From Apostichopus japonicus (taxonomy: Eukaryota; Echinodermata; Holothuroidea; Aspidochirotida; Stichopodidae), in assembly GCF_037975245.1 (NCBI RefSeq), contig NC_092576.1, positions 27,541,611 through 27,605,610 on the forward strand: DNA of 64,000 nt, given 5' to 3'. Positions 6,801 through 62,600 of this stretch are shown here, one piece after another; within the stretch, counting starts at the first letter, position 1, and every line of letters begins with the position of its first letter. The notes beneath the pieces were generated by a model. It searched no databases and was not told the DNA's origin. It saw only the letters and a list, made by a program, of their open reading frames with translations. The translations under genes were made by a program, and so were the position numbers.

Positions 6801-8672
6801 ACGTTCCTTTTCTGTTTTTTCGTTTTGTTTGATATTGATCAATTGGACTCTTTTTTTCCAAATTTGTTTGTAAAGGAACATACAAACTGTAAATGAACTG
6901 CGTCGAGATGAAATATAAAATGTTATTATAGCATGTGTTTGTGAAACTTGTTCTCTATCGCAAATGACAATATTGATCTTTGTGTGTCTCCCAATTAAAG
7001 TGGAATGCAAATAAAAAAGGGAATAAACTCCTTTATAACAAAACATAATTACCAGTTGGTTTAAGTTGGCGGACGGTTTGGAGGAGACGGGCATATGTAT
7101 AGTCATAAACCGGTTCACTCGTGTAATTTCCTGAGGCTGTGGGTAAATTGTTATTAAACGAAACTCAGCAGGTCGCCGAATTGTTGGTTAAAGCATGTTA
7201 TAAACAAGTCGTACTAACAAACTACTGACGGGAGTTTTGTGTTTTCAACTATTTGTAACAACCGTCACCCCTTTGCAGACTCATAACATAAAATTTGTAA
7301 TTACAACATGAGCTCAATGTTTAAATACGTAATTAGTTGAAGAGAGCCTCGATGTAATGCTATTATGATTTCTCATCATCTGTAATTTTTGGATCCCATT
7401 GGAGATTAACTCAAATATCGAAATGGCGTTATCATATTACTAGAACATTTCAAACTGAATCAATCTACCTTTATTTCCTCCGTCAGTTGCTGGTATTATG
7501 TTGTTATCTTCTCTCAGTATTAATTCTACGCAATCGCCATCTTTTATCTGAGAGGACCAAAATGCATAATGACACATATCATACCTCAACATATGTTTTT
7601 TTTTTGGGGGGGGGGGTTGGGAGGGGGGTAGTAATTACTGGGAGGGAGAGTCACATATCTCAACGGAGTAACCGGTGCTGTGGCCGAGTAGATAAAGGCG
7701 GTGGCATTTGATTTGAAGAAATGAAGCTTAGCAATCGGGAGGTGGGGTTTTGTCATCAAAAAGCAATCTACGGTTTCTGAATTGAAAAGAGTCCAAATGA
7801 GTTAAAATGTTGAATTTGAAGCCCCCGACGTGTAAATTGTAATCCATAAGCCTTTGCTGGTTTCTCTCACATTTGAGGTCGTTTGAGCGTCGTACAAATA
7901 ACCGCTGAATATTACTGTTATTATTATTATTTATGAATATAGGTTCCGTATAATCGAATTGTCTAATACAGATGATGACGTTACATATTTCATATTTCCA
8001 TTGATACATACTTATTTTACAAATGTATTACTCGACTCAAATGTTACCTCATACAATTATAGTCAAAGTGATCATAAATGCAATTTGCTTATACATTGTC
8101 TAAAGATAGAGAATTTCGTCTGTAATTAAGTAATGTGCAACTCATTACGATTTTCATTTATATATATATTCATTTTTCTTTGTCGTTTACCTCCATTGCA
8201 TTAACACACACACACATATATATATATACACATTTATATACATACATGTATATATATACATATATATATATACATATACATATATATATATATATATACT
8301 CTCGAAATTCCAAATCATTTGTGATTCCTAAAGCCGGATCTCGAAAGAGATCGTTATATATATATCTCTTTCGAGATCCGGCTTTAGGAATCACAAATGA
8401 TTTCGAGTTGGTTAGCATCATGTTTGATCTCTAGAGTAAGGCAAAATATGTCACCAAAAACAGAACTAGTATTGTTCGATTCAGGTGACAAACGCCTACA
8501 GTGGAATTGCGACCTCCCTTACCGGTTTCGAAACTCTGGACATACAATCAGCGTCCATAGCCTAGTGGTTAGGGTGTTCGCGTACAGAGCGGAAGGCCCG
8601 TGGTTCGAATCCCGGTGGAGGCTGAAAGTTTTTTCACTGTTCTTGATTTTCCAACTCATAACGATTTTCATT

Positions 8673-33384: not shown

Positions 33385-33717
33385 GTGCCCACACCGTCTC
33401 CACCACACAGCGAAGCGGACACGGGGTCTCCACCAGCTTCCTCCATCAACCCGTCCAGTTCCGTCCCCAGTCCGCCGCCGGTATCGCCAGATCCGGAGAC
33501 TCTGTCTGACGACGACTCGGTCGTCGGGTCTCCGGAGGCTATGTCTGACAGCGACTCCGGAGGCTCGGTGATCGTCGAGCCGAAACGTGCCACTGGGACG
33601 AGCTGGTACGACGAGATGGGGGAACCCTCACTGAAAAGGTCGGCCTCAAGTGACGACTCTGACGACGATATGTCGTCTAGAGCGCGCTTGAAGCTTACAG
33701 AATCGACGTCGGCGTAG
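33385..33717 (+). pseudogene. LINE ORF1 C-terminal fragment
   Basis: 110 codons rich in Ser, Pro and Asp (SDDDSVVGSPEAMSDSDSGG, SSDDSDDDMSSRARLKL), stop two bases before the ORF2 ATG. Composition and position fit the tail of a retrotransposon ORF1; no zinc knuckle is visible in what remains. Confidence 0.5.
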
Positions 33718-33719
33718 TT

Positions 33720-34600
33720 TTGCCCCATTGCCCTCTCATGGCCCATACATTTTCAGTTGCCACCTTGAACGTCAATGGCATGAGGGATCATCGCAAGCGC
33801 AGTCGCATTTTCCAATATTGTATTTCAATGGAAGTCGACTGCGTTTGCCTACAAGAAACACATATTTTGGAAGAAGATGTCCCTCTATGGGCTTATGAGT
33901 GGGGTGGTGGGCTGCATGCTTCGTTTGGTTCGTCTTCATCCTGTGGCACTGTCATCCTCCTGTCACCTCGTCAGGCGGGTTGTGCCACTAGGGTGGAGAC
34001 GGATCACGAGGGCCGATTGGTTTGGATTCTTTTCAAGTATCCACAGGGTAACATCTCCCTTTGCAATGTGTATGCTCCCAATCGGCCTTCTGCTAGACGA
34101 GATTTTTTTAACACACTGCCTTCCTTTGTTCCTGGTAGTGCTCCATGTGTCATGGTCGGAGACTTTAACTGTGTCCCAGACTCGGGTCTTGACAGACTCG
34201 GGGCTTCTGTGTCTGCTAGTCCCGACCCTGGGATCACAGAATTGGACAGATTCACTCCCGCACACCTTTTAGCCGATGTCTGGAGGCGTATACACCCGTG
34301 TAGTACGGTGTATACGTGGGTGAGGCCTAACGGAGAAAGTGCCTCCAGGATAGATCGAGTGTATGCGCCCGTAAGTTTTAAATTTTCGGGTTGCGAGACG
34401 CTCAGCTGTCCGCTCTCTGACCATGACACTGTGGTAGCACGTTTTGTTTTGCCTTCCATTTTCCCGATCGGGCGGGGCCTATGGAAGCTTAACTGTCGGA
34501 TTCTTGGCGAGGCAGAATTCCGCCAGGGTTTCGAGACCAGGTACAAAGGATGGCAAACATTGAAGCCGGCCTTTGCTTCTACATCCCAGTGGTGGGATAA
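33720..34600 (+). pseudogene. LINE ORF2, endonuclease domain
   Basis: The AP-endonuclease fold is clear: TLNVNGMRD, VCLQETHI, YAPNRPS, VMVGDFNCVPD, SRIDRVYAP and PLSDHDTVV give the Asn, Glu, Asp/Asn and SDH catalytic motifs. The open frame runs to 34,745, but homology moves to another frame near 34,600, so a frameshift lies there. Confidence 0.9.
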
Positions 34601-36080
34601 ATATCAAGTTGCGCATCAAACGCTACGCAATTCAGTATTGCGTGACCCGCGCACGGCGTCGAAGAGAAAAATTCTCGAAGCTGTGCGCGGAGGTGAAGTT
34701 TGGCGACCCTTCGGCAGTCATCGCTTTGCAGACGTATCTCGATGAAAAGTACCACGGTGCCCGCGTCAGGGCCCGTGTCGAAGCGGTGGAAGCCGAGGAG
34801 CGCCCTTCACTGAGGTTTTACCAGTCCGTTAGCTCATCGGCGGGTGACAGACGCGTCCCGTCTGTGCGCGCTACCGATGGGACCGTGGTCAGTGACCCTC
34901 ACGGCATTGTCCGCGTATATAAAGAGTATTATTCGAGTTTGTTTACACGTGGCAATGTCGACTTGTCGGCACAGTCTGATTTATTGAGGGGAATCTCAAA
35001 AACCGTTCCCCACGATGTCAATGATATTTTGGGGGGCGGAATAACCACTGTTGAGCTTTGGAAGGCGCTTTCGAAGATGAAGAATGGCAAGTCCCCGGGT
35101 TCGGACGGGCTTCCGAGGGAGTTCTACCGAACCTTCTGGGCAATAATAGGACCCGACATCAGAGCCGTCTTCGAGGACGCCTTCCAAAACGGACTGTTAA
35201 ACGAAAGTCAACGTCTGGGCATGATTACTTTGCTGCCAAAGTCTGGGGACCCCTTGGATCCCCATAACAAGCGTCCGATCACCTTGTTAAATGTGGACTA
35301 CAAGTTGCTGGCTAAGGCTTTGTGCAACCGCCTTGCACTGGCTATGCCGCATCTTGTTGGTGATCTCCAGACTTGTGCAGTGAAGGGTCATTGCATCCAG
35401 CAGAACTTGTGGTTGATGCGCGACTTGACCGACTTTGTTATTGAGCGTGATCTGCCATGTGCATTGGTGTCTCTGGACCAGCAGAAGGCCTTTGACATGG
35501 TGGATCGCGGTTTTTTAATGAATGTATTGGAGACGTTTCAGTTGCACCCAAATTTTCGTAAATGGATTTCTGTTTTGTATGAACAAAGTTTCAGTTCTGT
35601 TATCGTAAATGGGTTTTGTTCGGAGGTTTTTAACGTAGAGAGGGGGGTGCGCCAGGGGTGCCCTCTGTCTCCATTACTTTATGTTTTGTTTAGCGAGTCC
35701 CTCTCTCGTCTTTTGGAAAGGGACTCCAAACTTGTTCCATTCGTTGTGCCAGGGGGTGCCAAAGTGAAATGCGCTCAATATGCAGATGACGTGACATGTG
35801 TTGTTTCGAGTCTCGGCTCCTTTCGCGCACTCTCGCAGGATCTATCTATTTTTGAGAGAGCTACCGGGGCGAAGTTGAATCCAGAAAAGACAAAGGGCCT
35901 TCGTCTTGGTAGCTGGAGATACAGAGACTTACCATTCGGTGCGTCGTGGTCGGATCAGAATATCAAAATTAATGGTATATGGTTCGGCTACGATGCACCT
36001 TGTGATGTCACCTGGAACGAGAGGGCTGAGGTATTTCAGAGCAGACTCGAAACCTTTGGCACCCGCTGGCTTTCGATCTT
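34600..36080 (+). pseudogene. LINE ORF2, reverse transcriptase domain
   Basis: Reverse transcriptase blocks in order: KMKNGKSPGSDGLPREFYR, LLPKSGDP, RPITLLNVDYKLLAKAL, LVSLDQQKAFDMVDR, RGVRQGCPLSPLLYVL, CAQYADDVTCVV, GAKLNPEKTKGL. The catalytic YADD is intact. Open frame 34,573-36,252, with homology leaving it around 36,080. Confidence 0.95.
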
Positions 36081-37229
36081 GTTATTAATCGTTTCGTTTC
36101 GCCCATCTTGTGGTACCCGGGCGCGGTGTACCCTATTCCGCGTCGCGTCCTGGTACGGTTGGAGAGGGCGATTTTTTCATTCATATGGTCTGGTGGTACA
36201 GAGCTTGTCAAGAGGGCGGTATTGTACCAAAAACTGGAGAAAGGGGGACTAGGGGTGGTTCATCTGGGAAGTAAATTGACCTTTTTGTTATTTAAGCAGT
36301 TGTTTGTAGCGGTAACTGACCCAGGGTTGCCTTGTTCATATTTTGTACGTTTTTGGGGCGGTTTGCACCTGCGTCGATGAGTCCCGGCGCTGTTTAGCAA
36401 CAGAGAACCGCATAGTAGTACTCCAAACAGGGTGGTGCGTGTCATCTGCTCCGCTCTGATTGAGTTGCCCCCTGTTGACCTGTCACAGCCGGCCCTCGTT
36501 CACAGTTCGTTGAGGGATAAGGTCTTGAATGCAACTTTTGTCCAGGGACGTCATTCTGCCGAAGTATGGCGTTCGGTGCATTCAAGGCTGAATGGTTGCA
36601 GGCTCCGTGATCTTGCATGGAGAGTTGCACACGGTGCCTTGGTGACCAACCTAAAAAGATATCATTTGCGATTGGGTGATGGACTGTGCCCTAGGACCGG
36701 CTGTGACAGCTTAGAGAGTACTGCTCATGTTTTTTGGCATTGTTACTTTGTAGTAAACTTATGGGAGTGGTTCCAGACCTGGACCGACCGTGTTACGGGA
36801 GACCGTTCATGGTCGGTAGGGCAGGGCTTTATTTTATATGGGGTAGACCATCCAGTTTGTTCGGTAACTGTGTTGCACCGCATCATTTTTGTTTGCTCTA
36901 TTGTAAAAAAACATGTTTGGCGGAATAGATGTAATTTGGTTTTTAGGGGGAAATTTTCCAGTTGGCAGGCAGTCCTGGAGGCGGTGAAGTCTGACATTCG
37001 CCTTCAGATTGAAGGCGATTTTCGCCGTTTATCTGGGGCTGCCTTTTTTGGACGCTGGTGTGCTGGGGGGGTTTCGTTTCGCTGCGTGCGGGTCGTCCTT
37101 CTGTACGTTTTTGAATGTTTGAGTGGGGGGGGGGGGGGTTGGGCGTTTTGTCTCTGCAGGTCGGCGGGCGTATGTTTTTTTGGCTCGCTAGACCTTAGTT
37201 TCGTTTGTCAGAATGGGATGGTTCGGTAG
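36080..37229 (+). pseudogene. LINE ORF2, C-terminal zf-RVT domain
   Basis: The frame continues as WYPGAVYPIPRRVLVRLERA, has a TGA at 36,378, then resumes in the same frame with WRVAHGALVTNLKRYHLRLG, CPRTGCDSLESTAHVFWHC, the zinc-binding domain found after many reverse transcriptases. The end is GC-rich with G10 near 37,125. Confidence 0.85.
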
Positions 37230-37611
37230 TGCCGTTTGGCCGTGACGTTTTGTATCCCTCATGGCGGGTCACGTAAAAAGCACAGAAGTGTTAGAAACCA
37301 CCATCGATTCCAGAAAATACACACACAGCTTGCTACCGTCGGTAATTGACACTAGTGAACAGTCTATACATACCGCTACGGTCAATACCCACAACACAGT
37401 GTACATAGCAGCGATGGACATCGCAGGTCCAGCTAAAGATAACAAGGTATCACGTTTCTGCATTTTGTATCGACAAGAAGAAAACTTCACTTGCAAGCAA
37501 CGGAAAGTTAACTATTTCATAGCGCGACACGCGGTGTGGGGCAATGCTTTTAACTACCCAAACCCTAACAAAATAAAATTTAAAAAAGAAATCGTTTTTA
37601 GACGGTAAAAA

Positions 37612-44861: not shown

Positions 44862-47800
44862 CTGTAGAGGACGACGAGAGAAGAACAAACACATATTCAA
44901 GAGTTTTCTGATCAGAAAGGTATGTTAAAAACAAAACTTTGCAAAGGATGTGTTTCATTGTATAATACAGTGCTGGTGAAATTTACTTTACCACCTCACA
45001 AAGACTGCTATGTATGTAACCGTTGAGTGGCCTGACTGGTCTGTTAACAAATTGTTATCGGTAAATATTTTCAAAACTTGTGTCTTCTCTTTGACCAGCT
45101 GATCGGCATATCGACCACTGGCTATTTATCAAAATCCAAACTGAGGCTAAAGAAATGGGTTGTTTAGGGCAGATTAATGAATCGTCACAAGTAACAAGAA
45201 GTGGCTTTGTTGTGCCAAAAAAAATGTTCAATATTGGTTTGCTGTTATCGGCAACGAGGCTAAATTTTACAAAAAGATACCGATACACCATCAATGATGC
45301 AAATATCGGTGCATACAGACACAACACAATCAGTGTTCTCATAGGCGTAGGAGGCAGGGGGACTGGGAGGGGGGCTGCAGCCAATCGGGCAATATGCCTG
45401 GAATTTTTTGGGTACCTACTGAAAGAAAAGTAATTTGCACTGTTTTTTCAATGGTTAAACTTATATTATTATTATTATTATCATTATTATTGTAACGACT
45501 TCCCCAATAATTATAACCAATATGGAAGGGAAATAACAGGGCAAATGATTGTATGTTATTGGTGTGCGATGTTATAACCGATACATGCCCTAATGATATG
45601 CACATTAACATGATGAACACCAACCACTACCTCCCCCCACTCCCTGCAAGTTTATGAATGATGAAATATCAATGTCTTTTTTTCTCCCCTTGCCAAACTG
45701 TTTCAAAGACAAAACCAGAATGATAATACTGAGAGTAAACTCACCGTCAAGTCACAAGCCACCCTGGTGCTGAAGATCTTTTCTTGGTCTCGTACGATCT
45801 GAGTCCAGCAGGCGTCGTTACCGACCACCGCTATCACCGGTATCTTATGTCTACTGAAGGTGTCAAACTCGGCCACGCTGTAACCCAGGGTCCCGTCCCC
45901 GTAGATGATCCAGACCTCGCAGTCTGGTCGACACAACTTGGCACCGAGAGCGAAACCGCCACCCACTCCCAGAGTGCCAAAGGTTCCGGGTCCAGCCACT
46001 TCAAGGGTCCACGGGGCCTAGAGGGAAAGAAGGTTAAACGATTTAGGGATACTAAGATTTAGGAATGAAGTAAAACAGAGAATATTATACAGATACTAAA
46101 CCATTACAAACAGGATATCTATGATTGGCTGTTGCAATTGGTTACCGCTTGCGAGAAGATATGAACCCATGTATTATTTGCCGTATTGTCACTCTGACGA
46201 GCTATTGATCGAAGTAACAGCGTAGCATTTTGTGGTTAATAATTCATGCATCACTTGTGTTGGGACAAATATAGATGTCACTTTCATCAGCTCTGTTTGG
46301 ACTAATGTTAAATAATGTAAGAAGGACAACCTTTATAGATCACTGGCATACAATACTCAAGACTGTATTGTTGAAGTAACAAGTATATTTTTCACCATTC
46401 AAACCAAGGGTGCGTGCATGCAGCTGTTTAATTCAGTGAGAGACGTTTTTATTAGACTGTTCACACCTCTCAACCCACCTCACCTCAAGAAACTACCCCA
46501 TGTGAAGATGTTAACTGTACTACCAAATGTGTACACTTAAGTAGACTTGAATAAGCTGAAGTAAGTCCACCTCATCCCCACCTTCAAAGTACAGTAACTC
46601 CTCTAAGTGTTAACTGTTCAACCTATAACATCAAAGCAAATACTGCTATGACAATGATTTAGAGACACCACACCACACCCACCACAACCCCTCCAACCTC
46701 AAGTAATTCAATTTAACTATCTAAACTTCACTAACTGTGAATCAGACCATACAGTAGAACTCTCTTTTCCTCTTAATAATTTCCTTAATTTCCTTTTCTA
46801 AATGAATGTCACTTTATTTTCTCCTACCTGAGGATGTCACTTTATTTCCTCCTACCTAAGGATGTCACTTTATTTTCTCCTACCTGAGGATGTCACTTTA
46901 TTTCCTCCTACCTGAGGATGTCACTTTATATCCTCCTACCTGAGGATGTCACTTTATATCCTCCTACCTAAGGATGTCACTTTATTTCCTCCTACCTAAG
47001 GATGTCACTTTATTTCCATCTACCTGAGGATGTCACTTTATTTCCTCCTACCTGAGGATGTCACTTTATATCCTCCTACCTCAGGATGTCACTTTATTTT
47101 CTCCTACCTGAGGATGTCACTTTATTTCCTCCTACCTGAGGATGTCACTTTATATCCTCCTACCTGAGGATGTCACTTTATATCCTCCTACCTGAGGATG
47201 TCACTTTATATCCTCCTACCTGAGAATGTCACTTTATTTCCTCCGACCTGAGGATGTCACTTTATTTCCTCCTACCTGAGGATGTCACTTTATTTCCTCC
47301 TACCTGAGGATGTAAGCTGCGCTGCCTACAAAGTCCCCTCCGTCAGCTACTATGATGCTCTCCTCGTCCATCGCCTCCTCCACCTGGTAGAGGACCTTAA
47401 GAGGATTCAGGAAATGATTCACTTTATCTTCAGCTTTCTTCCTGGAATATTAAAACCAAAATACAGCGATTAACGCTTAAATACCCTAAAACGTCATCAG
47501 GCGCGTAGCCAGGGGGGGGGGGTGGGATGGGACGACTCACCCTTGAGCATTTTTTTTTGTAAGTTTTTATGACATCACTAGTAATTTCAAACTAGAAAAT
47601 GCTTAGATGCAACTTGCAAGGCCTGGGAAGTGCCATTTTCAGCGATCTGGGAGGCATTTTCGGCCCAAATTTTCTTGTTTGAATCGCGCCAACTCATGGT
47701 GGTGATACGCTTAGATAGCTTCCAATGCTGAATCTACGGCTCCGATAATTCGCCTCCAGGTTTGCCCCTCCCTTGGCAAATTCTTCGCTACGCGCCTGAA

Positions 47801-50800
47801 AGTCATCTCCTACTGGATGGTAGGACGGTGCGCTGTAAGTTCACAATGCTAAAAGGAACAAATGTCCTTCTGAAAAGACGATAATACCAACAAACTCTCT
47901 GATTTTTTGCTGTGTGGTTTAGTTCTACACTTCATCTCGGTGCTTTCGTTTATGGCTTTATCAGCTTCCACTAGATCGACGTGGATTTCGACGTGGATTT
48001 ATAACTTGTCAAGTTGAGAATGTGACAAAATATTAAAAGGAAGAAACCAGTAATTGTGGTTGATAATGAATTGTGAAAAGTGATTCAGATTACAAATATT
48101 TCCGTTTCAACTTTTGTTTATCTTTGGGATGTTTATATTCGATTTGTATCGCTGTATTAATTGGTACTGTAGTTGCAATGTGCAAAAAAGTAATATGAAC
48201 ACAATATAAATGGCAAAACTACACTGGAGACTGCATGTTAAGGTCTAGCTTCATTCATACCGACCACATGGTCTTGTCAACACATTCCCATATCTCTCAA
48301 AACAGGCAAAACTTTCAAGACAGGCAAAATCAAATTTGTATCAACCTTTGAGATCTTGTGAACACATTCAGCCCATTATTATATCATTATATATGTCACA
48401 GTTAAGTATCTCTTTTAGTATCATTTAGTTCATTTTTGGTAATTTTAAAACTCATATTTTTTTTTTCAACGATAAAAGTTTGAAAAGAGACCTAGGCTCT
48501 GACTCGACACTGAACTGAGGAAAAAGTAAAACAGAAGGAAAATGCCCAAGAAAGCGGCTGGACATGCAGACTAACAACTTGAATCACACTTAACAACTCC
48601 ATTCCCCCCTCTGACCCCCACCCTTTCATTGAGGCTGTGACCATTTGATCATGGTGGTAGCAGGCCAAGGAAAAGTCCTGCAACAGAAGCGAGAGAGATC
48701 CCATTTCTTGCAGCAATTTCAGATATTTTACGGAGTTGACTTACAAGTTCGCCGCTTCCTTCTCTTCGTCTCTGGCCTTCAACGATTGTATCCACTCGCT
48801 GCTACAGTTGAATCCTGTCAGACCCTTGGATACCTCCAGCAAGAAGGAACCTACATCAGCCTGAACTGCCAGGGCTGGTCTCCACATGACACCGGCATTC
48901 TGAACAACAATAACAACAGCAGAAATAAGATCGATTAAAATTGATTAGAAATTAGAAATTAAAATATTATGAATGACAGGAAACTGGTAGATTGGCCACA
49001 AGAGAGCCAGTTGGGACAGTTTCTTCATGCTAATAGATAGAAACATGAATATTCATACAATATATCTATGTCTCTGAATATGCATAGAGAGTCCTCTAAA
49101 TGTAATGAATATGTATATACTTACAAGAAGAAGTTGACTCTTGTTTCTGTTGACAGCTATGATCTTGGATCGTTTACTGAGCACTCGACCGTAGTTAAGT
49201 CTGAAGTCAGGAACAGCACCTGGGAAGTGGGAGACATTACAAAAAAGGGGGTTGAATGCCTTGGAAGCACAGCACATAAGTGAACCACTGGAGGAAGGGT
49301 TCTCAAATTCATCACAGATAGGGTCTCATTGGGGGTGCGTGCAGTGCGAGAATGTTACCAGTTAATAGGCTGGGGTAGATAGGTGTGCATAGGTACAGGT
49401 CGGTGAGGAGTGAAGTAAGTCCAGAGTAGATACCAGTCACTTCACCCAACTCCATTCATTTTTCTGGTGATTTTTCTGACCGGAGTCTGGTCGTCGAATA
49501 GTCGGTTTCCGAATTACCTCACCGGGAAGAATTTTACAAGGTTCTCCCTATCGTATTACTCTTGATATTCAGAGGTTGACAAATGCCTTGTCGAAACAAT
49601 GCAAACACGTCTCATGAGAAATCAGATTTAAAAAAAACAAGAGAGAAACGCCAAAAGGGTTTTCCAAGAAAAATGTTGAAAAGGAAAGATGACAACCTGA
49701 CGATAATTTGCATATTGTATCTACAAGCGATCTGAATTATTACTGATATACTGATATATACCATTAAACAGTAAACCTTCAAGAATGTTGTAAGTGTACA
49801 GGTTTTATATTACTACTCCTGCTACATTCTTAAAATAAGGAAACTTTCAATATCATCTCCAAACCAGTACCGTCGTATGTAGTATATTTTAAGGCACATT
49901 TTATATGTAGCATATTGTAATGCACATTTTGTATATAGCATATTTCAATGCACATATTAAATGCAGAATATTTTAATGCACATTTCGTATGTATCATATT
50001 GTATTGCACATTTGGTATGTATCATATTGTAATGCACAATTTGTATGTAGTATATTGTAATGCACATTTTGTATGTAGCATTTTGTAATGCACATTTTGT
50101 ATGTAGTATATTTTAATGCACATTTTGTATGTAGTACATTTTAATGTACATTTTGTATGTAGCATATTGTTATGCACATGCAATATATTTTATATATTTT
50201 GTATGTATCATATTGTAATGCACACTTTGTATGTAGTATATTTTATTGCACATTTTATATATAGCATATTGTAATGCACATTTTGTATGTAGTACATTTT
50301 AATGCACATTTTGTATGTAGTATATTTTAAGGCACATATTAAATGCAGCATATTTTAATGCACATTTTGTATGAAGCATATTTTAATGCACATATTAAAT
50401 GCAGCATATTTTAATGCACATTTTATATGCAGCATATTGTAACACACATTTTGTATGTAGTACATTTTAATGCACATTTTGTATGTATCATATTATATTG
50501 CACATTTTGTATGTATCATATTGTATTGCACATTTGGTATGTATCATATTGTAATGCACAATTTGTATGTAGTATATTTTAATGCACATTTTGTATGTAG
50601 CATATTGTTATGCACATTTGGTACGTATCATATTGTAATGCACATTTTGTATGTAGCATTTTGTAATGCACATTTTGTATGTAGAATATTGTAATGCACA
50701 TTTTATATGTAGTACATTTTAATGCACATTTTGTATGTAGTATATTTTAATGCACATGTAAATGCAGCATATTGTAATGCACATTTTGTATATGTAGTAT

Positions 50801-51155
50801 ATTGTAATGCACATTTTATATGCAGCATATTGTAATGCACATTTTGTATGTAGCATATTGTTATGCACATGCAATATATTTTATATATTTTGTATGTATC
50901 ATATTGTATTGCACATTTGGTATGTGTCATATTGTAATGCACAATTTGTATGCTAAACTAGAGTACTGTACTGTACACGGTAATAAGGCGGTCCTACAAA
51001 TCACTCCACTCACATGTTGACAATTTTACTCATTAAATCTCCTTTTGGTGAGTTCAATTCGACCCCCTTCAGTACGTTCTGGTAGTCGTAGAGGACGTCA
51101 ATGGGGAACTCAACGAATACTGGACCTGGAAGTATAAATGTTATGAGTTATATAG

Positions 51156-51220
<65 letters not shown>

Positions 51221-54200
51221 TCATATTAGAATAGTATAATTTAGTTAATTTGAATGTTTATGACAGAAGAAGTCAATCTGTCAGCTGTTTATTTTAGAAA
51301 GTTTTTCAAGTAACTTTAACTTTAGTCAATCCTGGTTGTTGTTGTTGGAAAGTAGTATCCAGGGATGTAGGACAATTTACATAAACCCTAATCCCTCTAT
51401 TCACTACAAAAGTACAAGGTAGCATAATTGAGTATGTATACAAAAGAAACATCACCAGGTCAGGGCATAGTTAATATAATACAAAGGTACAGGGTAGCAT
51501 AGCATAGCTAGTGCACACAAAAGAAACCTACCAGGGCAGTACATAGTCAAGATGACAATGTATTGTATTGCCAAGTTATGCTAATTGATGCACTATTAAT
51601 TATGCGTGACATCACATCCAGCCAGTGAAGTGAGTGTTGGATAAGATTTTTATTCACTCTCCAAAATACCATCATCGGATTGAGTCCTGCTATATCTCTT
51701 AGCTGAAAAAGACGGAGCTACAGTAATGTGATTTTCATATCATGGGGCACTATATAAGATACCTGTATTGAAGCCTGGGCTAGTATACTGTAATTTATAA
51801 CTGGCATTTTACTGTAAAATCTGAAAACACAATTATTTCCTGGAGACTCCAGATTCATTCAATATGTAGTGTTCTGGATAGGGAAGCTTGTCGGCAGAGT
51901 TGGAATGAGAGTACATTACCTGACCGGATAAAATAAGCTGTATTGCAGAGCTCGTCTGACAGTTTAAGAACTGGCACCATTGTAAGTAGAAACTTGTTAT
52001 ATAAATATGTTCTGTATATGTAATATTTGGGATGCAACCACTTTAAAGTTTGTATACTTTTGGAGGTGCACAAATGTCAGTTTAATTTTGTGTAGTAATT
52101 TTTCATTATGTTGGATAGTAAAAGTCACGCCTTAATTGACTTTCCTTAAGAAAGTGGATGTTTGCTATGATTGTAATAGTGATGGTGACTTTTATAGCAC
52201 TAAAAATTAATTCAAACTAATCTTGGCAGAGAGTGGTTATATGTTTAGTGTAGTGAACATGAGGTTAGTGTGCATAAAGGAAAGTTATGATGTGCTCACC
52301 ATAGCTTTGGAGTAGGAATGTATATATGTTTGAGTTTAACCAATTTTTTGTTTGTATGTGGAACAAACTAAACTTTGTTCAAGATTCATATATGGGTTAT
52401 TGTTACAATTTTTTTATTATAAATTTTTGCAACATATTTAGTATATTGTATTTGGACAAAGTACTATCAGAGAATTTGATTGTGTATTTTGTTCCGATAC
52501 AGTGCCACTCTCCTCACATTGAGTCGAAGACCGGAAGCTTTTGAGGATAGTTTTTTCACCGACTATAACACCTACCACAACCTGATATCAGCAACCGCAT
52601 GTCAACAAGTATTGTCAACATCTTTAGGCAATATTCGTCATAGTGACAACTCAGAATTCATTTTTCTTAAGATAATTGTTAAATCAGAATTTCATGATGT
52701 AAAGGGGGGAAAGCTCTTCAGACTAGAAGAGGTAGTCTCATTCTTTTGTAGAGAAAAGAATATCCTATAAATATATATATTAAGACTAAATTTATACGTA
52801 CCAGTTTGCTCTCTCGCAATTGAAAAAGATCCAGGGGTATCAAAACTTTGGAAAGTCTTAAACTTTTCAGTAGTTAAGCTAAATCTAGCATATACCATCC
52901 TCTGGTAAAGATTGCGCCAAAGCAATCCGTTATCTCTAAGTATTCAGGAGTCATATGTGTTCTTAAGGAGTATTACAGAGCGTTGTAACCTTTATTTTCC
53001 ATGTTCCTTTTTTTATTCTTTTAAGGAGAAAGTTCCTCCTCAATAAATACATAAGAAGTTGAATTTATAAAACTTGTTCTGTATCATTAGTTGGTTGGAG
53101 TATTTCTTTTTTACATTGCATATTGATTTTGGATAGCCGCTAGGCGAATGTGTCGCATTGCCACTTGCATTCTTTTTGTGGGTGACATTTCATTTTTTAT
53201 ATTTATATATATATATATATATAAATATAAATATAAAAAATGAATATGTAGCAAGTGGTATGACAGACATATATAAATCAATAAAGAATAACACACCAGA
53301 AAAATTCCACTTCACGACCGGTTTCGTCCTTTTGGGACTCATCAGGCGAAGGTAGGAATCAAACCACGGATCTTCGTGTCACGAACCGAAGTCCGTACCA
53401 CTCGACCACAGTGATTCTACTGGTGTGTTAAAGCGTATAAATTGGCTTTGAATAACTGTCATTAAGGGCGTATTACCCAAGTGTTATGATTGTACAGAGT
53501 GCACCCCTGGCGCTGGCAATTTTACACAGAATAACCACTCTTTAGGCAAGCCAAGCCGTAAATAAGAAATGAATATGTAGCAAGTGGTATAACAGATATA
53601 TATAAATTAATAAAGAATAACACACCAGAAAAATTCCACTTCACGACCGGTTTCGTCCTTTCTGTCATACACACTATAGTCACTCAGTGCAGGAGGATAC
53701 TGTACATTCAATATGATGACATCTGAAGGATACAGTCACTGTGTGACACCTCAGACAGGAAAGCAGTCACATTGTGACTGCACCAAAGTCAGAGCTACCA
53801 GAAGTTAATATCACAAATGTTTAGATCCTATTTAACACAAAATCTTAAAATTTGGTGTTGGGGGTTTGTTAATGAACTTAAATACAAAATGTGACTGACT
53901 TGACATCAATGACTGAATATTCATAAGTTTAACCTAATTTTACTTACCTGGCGTATCAGACGGGGCCACCCGTATGGCCTCCCTCAAGACTGGGGCGATA
54001 TCTCGGACAGTTTGGACCGCTGCGCAAAACTTGCAGAGCGGTTTAAATAACGACATCTGATCTATATCTTGGAGGGCACCTCGACCCTGAAAATGAAGGA
54101 TAAATCAGCTAGTATAAGGGCATACTGTACAATGATCTCTCTCCCTGATTAAGGAACATTTTGCAATGAAGCTTTGAGCAACACGGTGTGTCCCCCCCCC

Positions 54201-62244: not shown

Positions 62245-62600
62245 ACCTTACTTACCAGTCCAGTTTCGAACCTCTGGACATACAATCAGCGTCCATAGCC
62301 TAGCTGGTTAGGGTGTCCACGTACAAAGCGGGAAGCCCGGGTTCGAATACCGGTGAAGGCTGGAATTTTTTCACTGTTCTGGTTTTTCCTTCTCATTACG
62401 TTTTCATTTATATATATATATTCATTTGCCTTCGTAGTTGACCTCCATTTAATGAACATATAGTCTGTTCCGGCTTTAGGAATCACAAATGATTTTCGAG
62501 TTAATTGTACAGAATGCACCCCTGGTATTTTGAATCTGACGATACACACAGACTAACCACTCATTAATAAAGGCAAGCAAGGCCGGTGTAGCAGTACAAA
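62245..62600 (+). mobile_element. tRNA-derived SINE copy 2
   Basis: Head ATAGCCTAGCTGGTTAGGGTG and GGTTCGAATACC repeat the 8.55-kb SINE, followed by TCATTTATATATATATATTC, CCGGCTTTAGGAATCACAAA, then GTACAGAATGCACCCCTGG and a run ending GGCAAGCAAGGCCGG that is also the tail of the hammerhead element at 53.5 kb. It shows the full order of the family. Confidence 0.8.

What the first reader, a model, noticed from the sequence alone, without database searches (positions are those of the whole stretch)
53241..53675. Complete hammerhead ribozyme fused to a tRNA-like Pol III head in a 329-bp tandem unit
All core bases (CTGATGA, GAAA, GTC) and stems I and II are present on the minus strand, directly following a box A/box B head. 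A second, truncated ribozyme lies exactly one unit away, the layout expected of retrozymes (circular self-cleaved RNAs inserted as multimers). Head and shared tail also tie it to a local SINE family, so it may be a SINE-retrozyme hybrid.
Basis: partly seen in the sequence, partly recalled or inferred. Interest (0 to 1): 0.88.

Follow-up and report, generated by a model that had tools for sequence, protein, structure and literature searches.

The report
Ribozyme-bearing jumping repeat in an animal
This is one copy of a small mobile DNA repeat that encodes a self-cutting RNA; the way its copies end in the genome points to the likely, still uncertain, enzyme system that moves such repeats in animals.

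Summary
In detail: a complete type I hammerhead ribozyme at 53351-53310 (minus strand; RF00163 38.8 bits, cut-off 34), with the 3' half of a second one exactly 329 bp away and box A and box B motifs just before it.

It belongs to a genome-wide family: 254 exact-core ribozymes, 0 for the reversed pattern. Consensus unit 340 bp. Copies are 5'-truncated; of 60 sampled with an intact core, 15 exceed one unit and 17 carry inverted pieces (14 and 16 of 57 after removing duplicated loci). The ribozyme is the best conserved 42 nt. This is a metazoan retrozyme family, in layout like schistosome Sm-alpha.

New here: most 3' ends lie about 43 or 81 nt past the ribozyme cut and run into (TA)n. A Penelope-like element (PLE) in this genome ends mostly 50 or 81 nt past its ribozyme relic, also in (TA)n. 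The literature calls a two-ended "tail" unique to PLEs. A LINE control shows 0 of 20 such ends. PLE machinery therefore probably moves this retrozyme, which published reviews leave open.

Sequence kinship with the local SINE is not supported. A Pol III role rests on motifs alone; one test for it failed. Cleavage and circular RNA are untested.

The parts
53233..53661 (-). The retrozyme copy, 1.30 units, from consensus position u324 round to u84
53316..53644 (-). One full 329-bp unit from predicted cleavage site to predicted cleavage site (family consensus 340 bp)
53310..53351 (-). Complete type I hammerhead ribozyme; predicted cut between 53316 and 53315
   Evidence: RF00163, 38.8 bits; identical to the commonest form among 78 ribozyme instances
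53639..53661 (-). 3' part of the second, 5'-truncated ribozyme, one unit upstream
53398..53408 (-). Box A motif TGGTCGAGTGG
53355..53365 (-). Box B motif GGTTTGATTCC (consensus GGTTCGATTCC)
53300..53304 (-). TTTTT run 12-16 nt after the cut, a possible Pol III stop; TTTT or longer in 71 of 79 units covering it
53204..53223 (.). (TA)n array into which the 3' end of the copy runs

Best explanation
A non-autonomous animal retrozyme family whose copies were made by the machinery of Penelope-like elements. Shown: RNA-strand unit of about 340 nt with a conserved type I hammerhead; copies with scattered 5' ends, two preferred 3' ends about 43 and 81 nt past the predicted cut, (TA)n at the 3' side, inverted pieces and more than one unit in a quarter of sampled copies; PLEs in the same genome with the same end pattern. 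Inferred: transcripts (perhaps from the A/B boxes) are cut by paired ribozymes through the palindromic stem III and ligated to circles, or used uncut as multimers; the PLE protein nicks a TA array and starts reverse transcription inside the RNA, about 43 or 81 nt past the cut; running past one unit gives tandem copies. A self-cleaved linear monomer cannot be the template, since reverse transcription from u50 or u81 would stop at u1 and the sampled copies cross that junction (they were chosen for holding the ribozyme).
For: Ribozyme. It is the least diverged 42-nt stretch of the unit: 74/2915 substitutions (2.5%) against 848/16469 (5.1%) elsewhere; only 3 of 340 window starts, the ribozyme itself and its two neighbours, are as low (35 loci ranked by whole-unit similarity). 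3' ends: first set 47 measured, 26 at 34-51 and 17 at 70-93 nt past the cut; second set 32 of 40 measured, 13 at 42-54 (mode 43) and 15 at 73-89 (mode 81, seven copies, two of them one duplicated locus). PLE-A: of 18 relics, 9 at 45-52 (mode 50), 6 at 81-83, one at 59, two without. PLE-A also shows inverted and partial head-to-tail copies. PLE proteins: RVT_1 plus GIY-YIG. LINE control: 0 of 20 copies with TA at the 3' end, against 32 of 40 retrozyme copies. PMC11167929 (abstract and main text read): PLE reverse transcription starts internally at two sites, seen as an optional 30-40 bp tail called unique to PLEs; starts 111-118 bp into the ORF with the ribozyme cut at 26, that is about 85-92 nt past the cut; the enzyme cuts AT-rich DNA. 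Units within one copy share family-level variants 507 of 611 times, 419 expected, and are closer to each other than to other copies in 33 of 40 pairs. Co-folding two ribozymes gives a double hammerhead through ACCGGU, -28.7 against -12.3 kcal/mol each.
Against: No sequence similarity between retrozyme and PLE tails: local score reached by 186 of 1000 shuffles, no blastn match at E 0.1 to 13 PLE-region stretches, global score reached by 174 of 2000. The short ends differ by 7 nt (43 against 50). PLE-B ends at 124 in four of seven, and at 45, 139 and none in the others; PLE-C at 124, so the distances are not universal. No target-site duplication other than TA repeats. 5' ends are often not TA (15 of 40 are), unlike a simple insertion into the middle of an array. 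8 of 40 copies have no TA within 130 nt of the cut. In vitro a PLE RNA starting at +20 of the ORF still worked, so most of its ribozyme was dispensable, and ribozyme mutants did not affect insertion. Pairs are not independent, and one L019 value joins two copies.
Confidence: 0.72

Rival explanations
1. Retrozyme moved by a LINE, as SINEs usually are; the TA arrays are tails made by slippage at the start of reverse transcription.
For: Metazoan retrozymes in Nematostella have 15-bp target duplications of LINE type (PMC4918200, passages). The element's short end is itself TATATAT.
Against: No target duplication outside TA repeats in 49 loci. The one LINE family checked has 0 of 20 TA ends. The long end lies where the RNA has no UA repeat, yet (TA)n follows. 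Two alternative ends are a PLE trait.
Confidence: 0.13
2. A Pol III SINE that has picked up a ribozyme; tandem copies come from repeated insertion or unequal exchange, and the ribozyme is passive.
For: Exact box A and box B in the consensus. Sm-alpha is a tRNA-derived SINE with a hammerhead (PMC2770079, passages).
Against: The ribozyme is the best conserved part of the unit. No tRNA covariance match. A TTTTT run right after the ribozyme would end Pol III transcripts before either 3' end. A cluster of 5' ends near box A (12 of 53) did not recur (0 of 34).
Confidence: 0.12
3. A degenerate satellite-like repeat, no longer mobile, with a chance ribozyme match.
For: The window copy has lost about 11 bp relative to the consensus and is about 5% diverged.
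Against: 254 exact cores, dispersed over chromosomes with different flanks, mostly two preferred 3' ends, near-identical units in some copies (L013, 1 of 336).
Confidence: 0.03

Closest known systems
Metazoan non-LTR retrozymes (PMC7229834)
   Same: Type I hammerhead, unit 329-345 bp within their 150-450 bp range, tandem copies, GC below 50%, no ORF, PLEs with minimal hammerheads in the same genome.
   Different: Here with A and B box motifs; a review states that retrozymes seem to lack promoters (PMC7761336, passages). No target duplication; two-ended tail in (TA)n, not described in the passages I read.
Sm-alpha / Sj-alpha of schistosomes (PMC2770079, PMC4918200, PMC8490949, passages)
   Same: Pol III-type head plus type I hammerhead; W36.2_W001, related to SMalpha, is 335 bp.
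   Different: Sm-alpha has a full tRNA-Gln; here only the two boxes. No sequence comparison was made, as no Sm-alpha sequence was held.
Penelope-like elements, with PAc of Anolis as the studied case (PMC11167929)
   Same: Two-ended tail, AT-rich target, tandem and partial tandem copies, hammerhead upstream of the reverse-transcription start at a like distance.
   Different: The retrozyme encodes no protein and shares no detectable sequence with the PLE tails tested.

Membership tests
Metazoan non-LTR retrozyme | Type I hammerhead with intact core | tested here: met
Metazoan non-LTR retrozyme | Repeat unit of about 150-450 bp in tandem copies | tested here: met
   Full units 323-345 bp, 29 measured; 15 of 60 sampled copies longer than one unit, 14 of 57 after removing duplicated loci; longest 2.99 units
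Metazoan non-LTR retrozyme | No protein coding; GC below 50% | tested here: met
   Longest stop-free stretch in a tripled consensus 62 codons; GC 0.41-0.42
Metazoan non-LTR retrozyme | Target duplication longer than 4 bp, when present | tested here: not met
   None outside TA repeats in 49 loci; longest other match 7 nt. The source says 'when present', so this does not exclude membership
Metazoan non-LTR retrozyme | Self-cleavage and circular RNA | not testable with these tools
   Only folding: ribozyme stems I and II form in the circular minimum-energy fold; z -2.85 for the consensus, -1.52 for the window unit
tRNA-derived SINE / Sm-alpha type | Internal A and B boxes | tested here: met
   both exact in 33 of 64 units that cover them
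tRNA-derived SINE / Sm-alpha type | Recognisable tRNA fold | tested here: not met
   No RF00005 match; ARAGORN found none within the element in 25 loci
Penelope-like element, as autonomous element | RT and GIY-YIG ORF | tested here: not met
   No long ORF in the unit
Works like a PLE at integration | Two alternative 3' ends 30-40 nt apart, in AT-rich target | tested here: met
   Modes 43 and 81, replicated in a second sample; (TA)n at 32 of 40 3' ends

The most novel reading that the evidence does not exclude
PLE proteins recognise a folded RNA landmark and start reverse transcription at set distances beyond it (about 45-50 and about 80-90 nt). The landmark is a hammerhead in PLEs and retrozymes and a tRNA-like fold in the local SINE, whose tRNA end lies 47-49 nt before (TA)n in 21 of 23 cases and 93 in one. 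Hammerheads would then persist in these elements partly as docking folds, which would explain PLE-A, whose 18 seen relics all lack the CUGAUGA box but keep stem II, GAAAC and GUC. Retrozymes and this SINE would both be parasites of PLEs.
Probability: 0.2. Interest if true: 0.85.

Novelty: new member of a known kind. Interest (0 to 1): 0.6.

Why it matters
Published accounts propose PLEs as a strong candidate to move animal retrozymes (PMC7229834) but state that the repeats show no conserved motif from which the partner could be deduced (PMC7761336). Copy ends are such a clue. The same measurement can be made in any animal genome with retrozymes and PLEs, and in vitro with a purified PLE protein, so an open question becomes directly testable.

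Tried and rejected
Sequence homology of retrozyme and SINE, and of retrozyme and PLE tails: tested and not found. A 9-nt near-match, TGCTACRCA at +64 and +63, was noticed after the fact and is not counted as evidence.

Pol III start seen as a cluster of 5' ends near box A: 12 of 53 in the first sample, 0 of 34 in the second; dropped.

Palindrome-keeping changes in stem III: of 18 cores with a changed first middle base, 2 are double changes and both keep the palindrome; too few.

Target duplications: none outside TA. A hidden hammerhead in the SINE: no Rfam match. Family PF26215 is not in the library. PMC4209133 and PMC108972 are not held.

Sampling limits: the 60 copies come from the first 100 listed of 254 places (contigs C1-C10), not a random draw; three pairs are duplicated loci. 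The 35 loci were ranked by a query that holds ribozyme sequence at both ends. Genome repeat counts are lower bounds (only the best candidates are scored).

Full report
What is there. On the minus strand of the window, 53233-53661, lies a 429-bp copy of a non-coding repeat, 1.30 units long. It holds one complete type I hammerhead ribozyme (53351-53310; RF00163, 38.8 bits, cut-off 34) and, one 329-bp unit upstream, the 3' part of another. Box A and box B precede the ribozyme.

The family. An exact-core pattern finds 254 places in the 671.6-Mb genome and none for the reversed pattern. A consensus of 29 full units (323-345 bp) is 340 bp. In 35 loci ranked by whole-unit similarity, the ribozyme region has 74 substitutions in 2915 positions and the rest 848 in 16469; of 340 possible 42-nt windows only the ribozyme and its two immediate neighbours are that low. 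The ribozyme has thus been held more constant than the rest during spread. The ranking query contained ribozyme sequence at both ends, a small bias in its favour.

Ribozyme form. Stem III is the palindrome ACCGGU with no room for a proper loop. Co-folding two copies gives the double hammerhead joined through it (-28.7 against -12.3 kcal/mol for one). Dimeric action is known for such minimal forms (PMC7761336, PMC7229834, abstract and passages or sections). Cleavage itself was not tested.

Copy anatomy. In the first 49 loci, lengths run from 0.26 to 2.99 units and 14 of 49 have an inverted piece. All 35 loci taken from the similarity search exceed one unit and none of the 14 from the Rfam search does, so both were biased by how they were found. 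I therefore took 60 copies from the pattern list: 15 exceed one unit and 17 carry inverted pieces; three pairs are duplicated loci, which leaves 14 and 16 of 57. 5' ends are scattered.

3' ends. I measured from the predicted cut to the first (TA)5 or longer. First set: 47 ribozyme 3' halves with such an array within 130 nt, of which 26 lie at 34-51 and 17 at 70-93 (halves without an array were not counted there). Second set: 32 of 40 measured, 13 at 42-54 with mode 43, 15 at 73-89 with mode 81, three at 30-37 and one at 65. (TA)n is near the 3' end in 32 of 40 and near the 5' end in 15 of 40, while 0.3% of window positions have such an array starting within the next 10 nt. No target duplication other than TA was seen.

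PLEs in the same genome. GIY-YIG hits led to elements with RVT_1 plus GIY-YIG in one ORF. PLE-A keeps a hammerhead relic (stem II, GAAAC, GUC) without the CUGAUGA box in all 18 instances matched. From its cut position to (TA)n: nine at 45-52, six at 81-83, one at 59, two without. It too has inverted and partial head-to-tail copies. PLE-B carries a complete minimal hammerhead by eye (no Rfam match) and ends at 124 in four of seven; a third PLE also at 124. The retrozyme matches PLE-A, not PLE-B.

Control. The LINE at 33681-37283 has many copies; in 20 whose 3' ends I read, none is followed by (TA)n. The TA ends are not a property of every retroelement here.

The SINE. The local SINE (window 8551-8623 and 62289-62361, real tRNA match) also ends in (TA)n, 47-49 nt past its tRNA end in 21 of 23 cases and once at 93. 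It can be tandem (L061) and have inverted pieces (L069, L074). It does not share significant sequence with the retrozyme.

Link to known mechanism. For the Anolis PLE, reverse transcription starts inside the RNA at two sites, seen as an optional 30-40 bp tail said to be unique to PLEs, at AT-rich targets; with the ribozyme cut 26 bp into the ORF and a start at 111-118, that is 85-92 nt past the cut (PMC11167929, main text read). The retrozyme shows the same pattern. This makes PLE machinery the likely mover. It remains an inference from anatomy: tail sequences are not alike. The same paper found the ribozyme's activity, and most of its sequence, dispensable for insertion in vitro, which counts against any direct role of cleavage or of the whole fold.

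Template. Because copies run across the cleavage junction, the template was uncut or re-joined. Units within a copy share family variants more than expected (507 of 611, 419 expected), as one circle copied repeatedly would give; a multimer transcribed from a homogeneous tandem would give this too. The pairs are not independent.

Pol III. Box A and B are exact in the consensus (0 of 3000 shuffles), but a TTTTT run sits 12-16 nt after the cut and would stop Pol III before either 3' end. A first hint that 5' ends cluster at the expected start (12 of 53) failed in the second sample (0 of 34).

Organism. Size (671,581,487 bases) and the contig sizes I saw (18.2 to 46.04 Mb) fit the published Apostichopus japonicus assembly (671.64 Mb, 34 scaffolds, 18.21-46.02 Mb; PMC10344927, passages). 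This is an inference, not a sequence match. One literature search for hammerheads or retrozymes with sea cucumbers or echinoderms showed none in its ten listed papers of 4067, so it proves nothing about absence; PMC7229834 has no mention of echinoderms.

Verdict. A real, conserved and formerly mobile retrozyme family; a new member of a known kind, with new evidence on how such elements move.

Noticed in passing
window 8551-8623 and 62289-62361: Copies of a tRNA-derived SINE (RF00005 46.8 and 31.1 bits here, 54 in L061) that ends 47-49 nt past its tRNA part in (TA)n and can be tandem with a unit of 399 bp including the TA array.
   Followed up: partly
window 62504-62578: A 70% match, in reverse orientation, to retrozyme unit positions about 89-156, directly after the SINE; perhaps an old copy or a shared module.
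   Followed up: no
window 53150-53230: Beyond the (TA)n array the sequence is partly an inverted echo of the element's tail (CCACTTGC...ATTC...TTTTTTATA), as if another element ended there from the other side.
   Followed up: no
L054, L056, L058: PLE-A with an intact 903-aa ORF reading whose hammerhead relic lacks the CUGAUGA box; two 3' ends; inverted copies.
   Followed up: partly
L055, L057, L094, L096, L098: PLE-B with a minimal hammerhead having a loopless AGCU stem III, not matched by Rfam models at E up to 1 in the loci scanned.
   Followed up: partly
window 33681-37283: A LINE (RVT_1, 110.9 bits) whose copies end in GTAAAAAGCAC; several of its best matches lie on C17, C16 and C11.
   Followed up: partly
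window 49875-50952: A long array of 28-bp repeats (GTATGTAGCATATTGTAATGCACATTTT) with higher-order 56 and 84 bp periods; another 28-bp array at 46806-47313.
   Followed up: no
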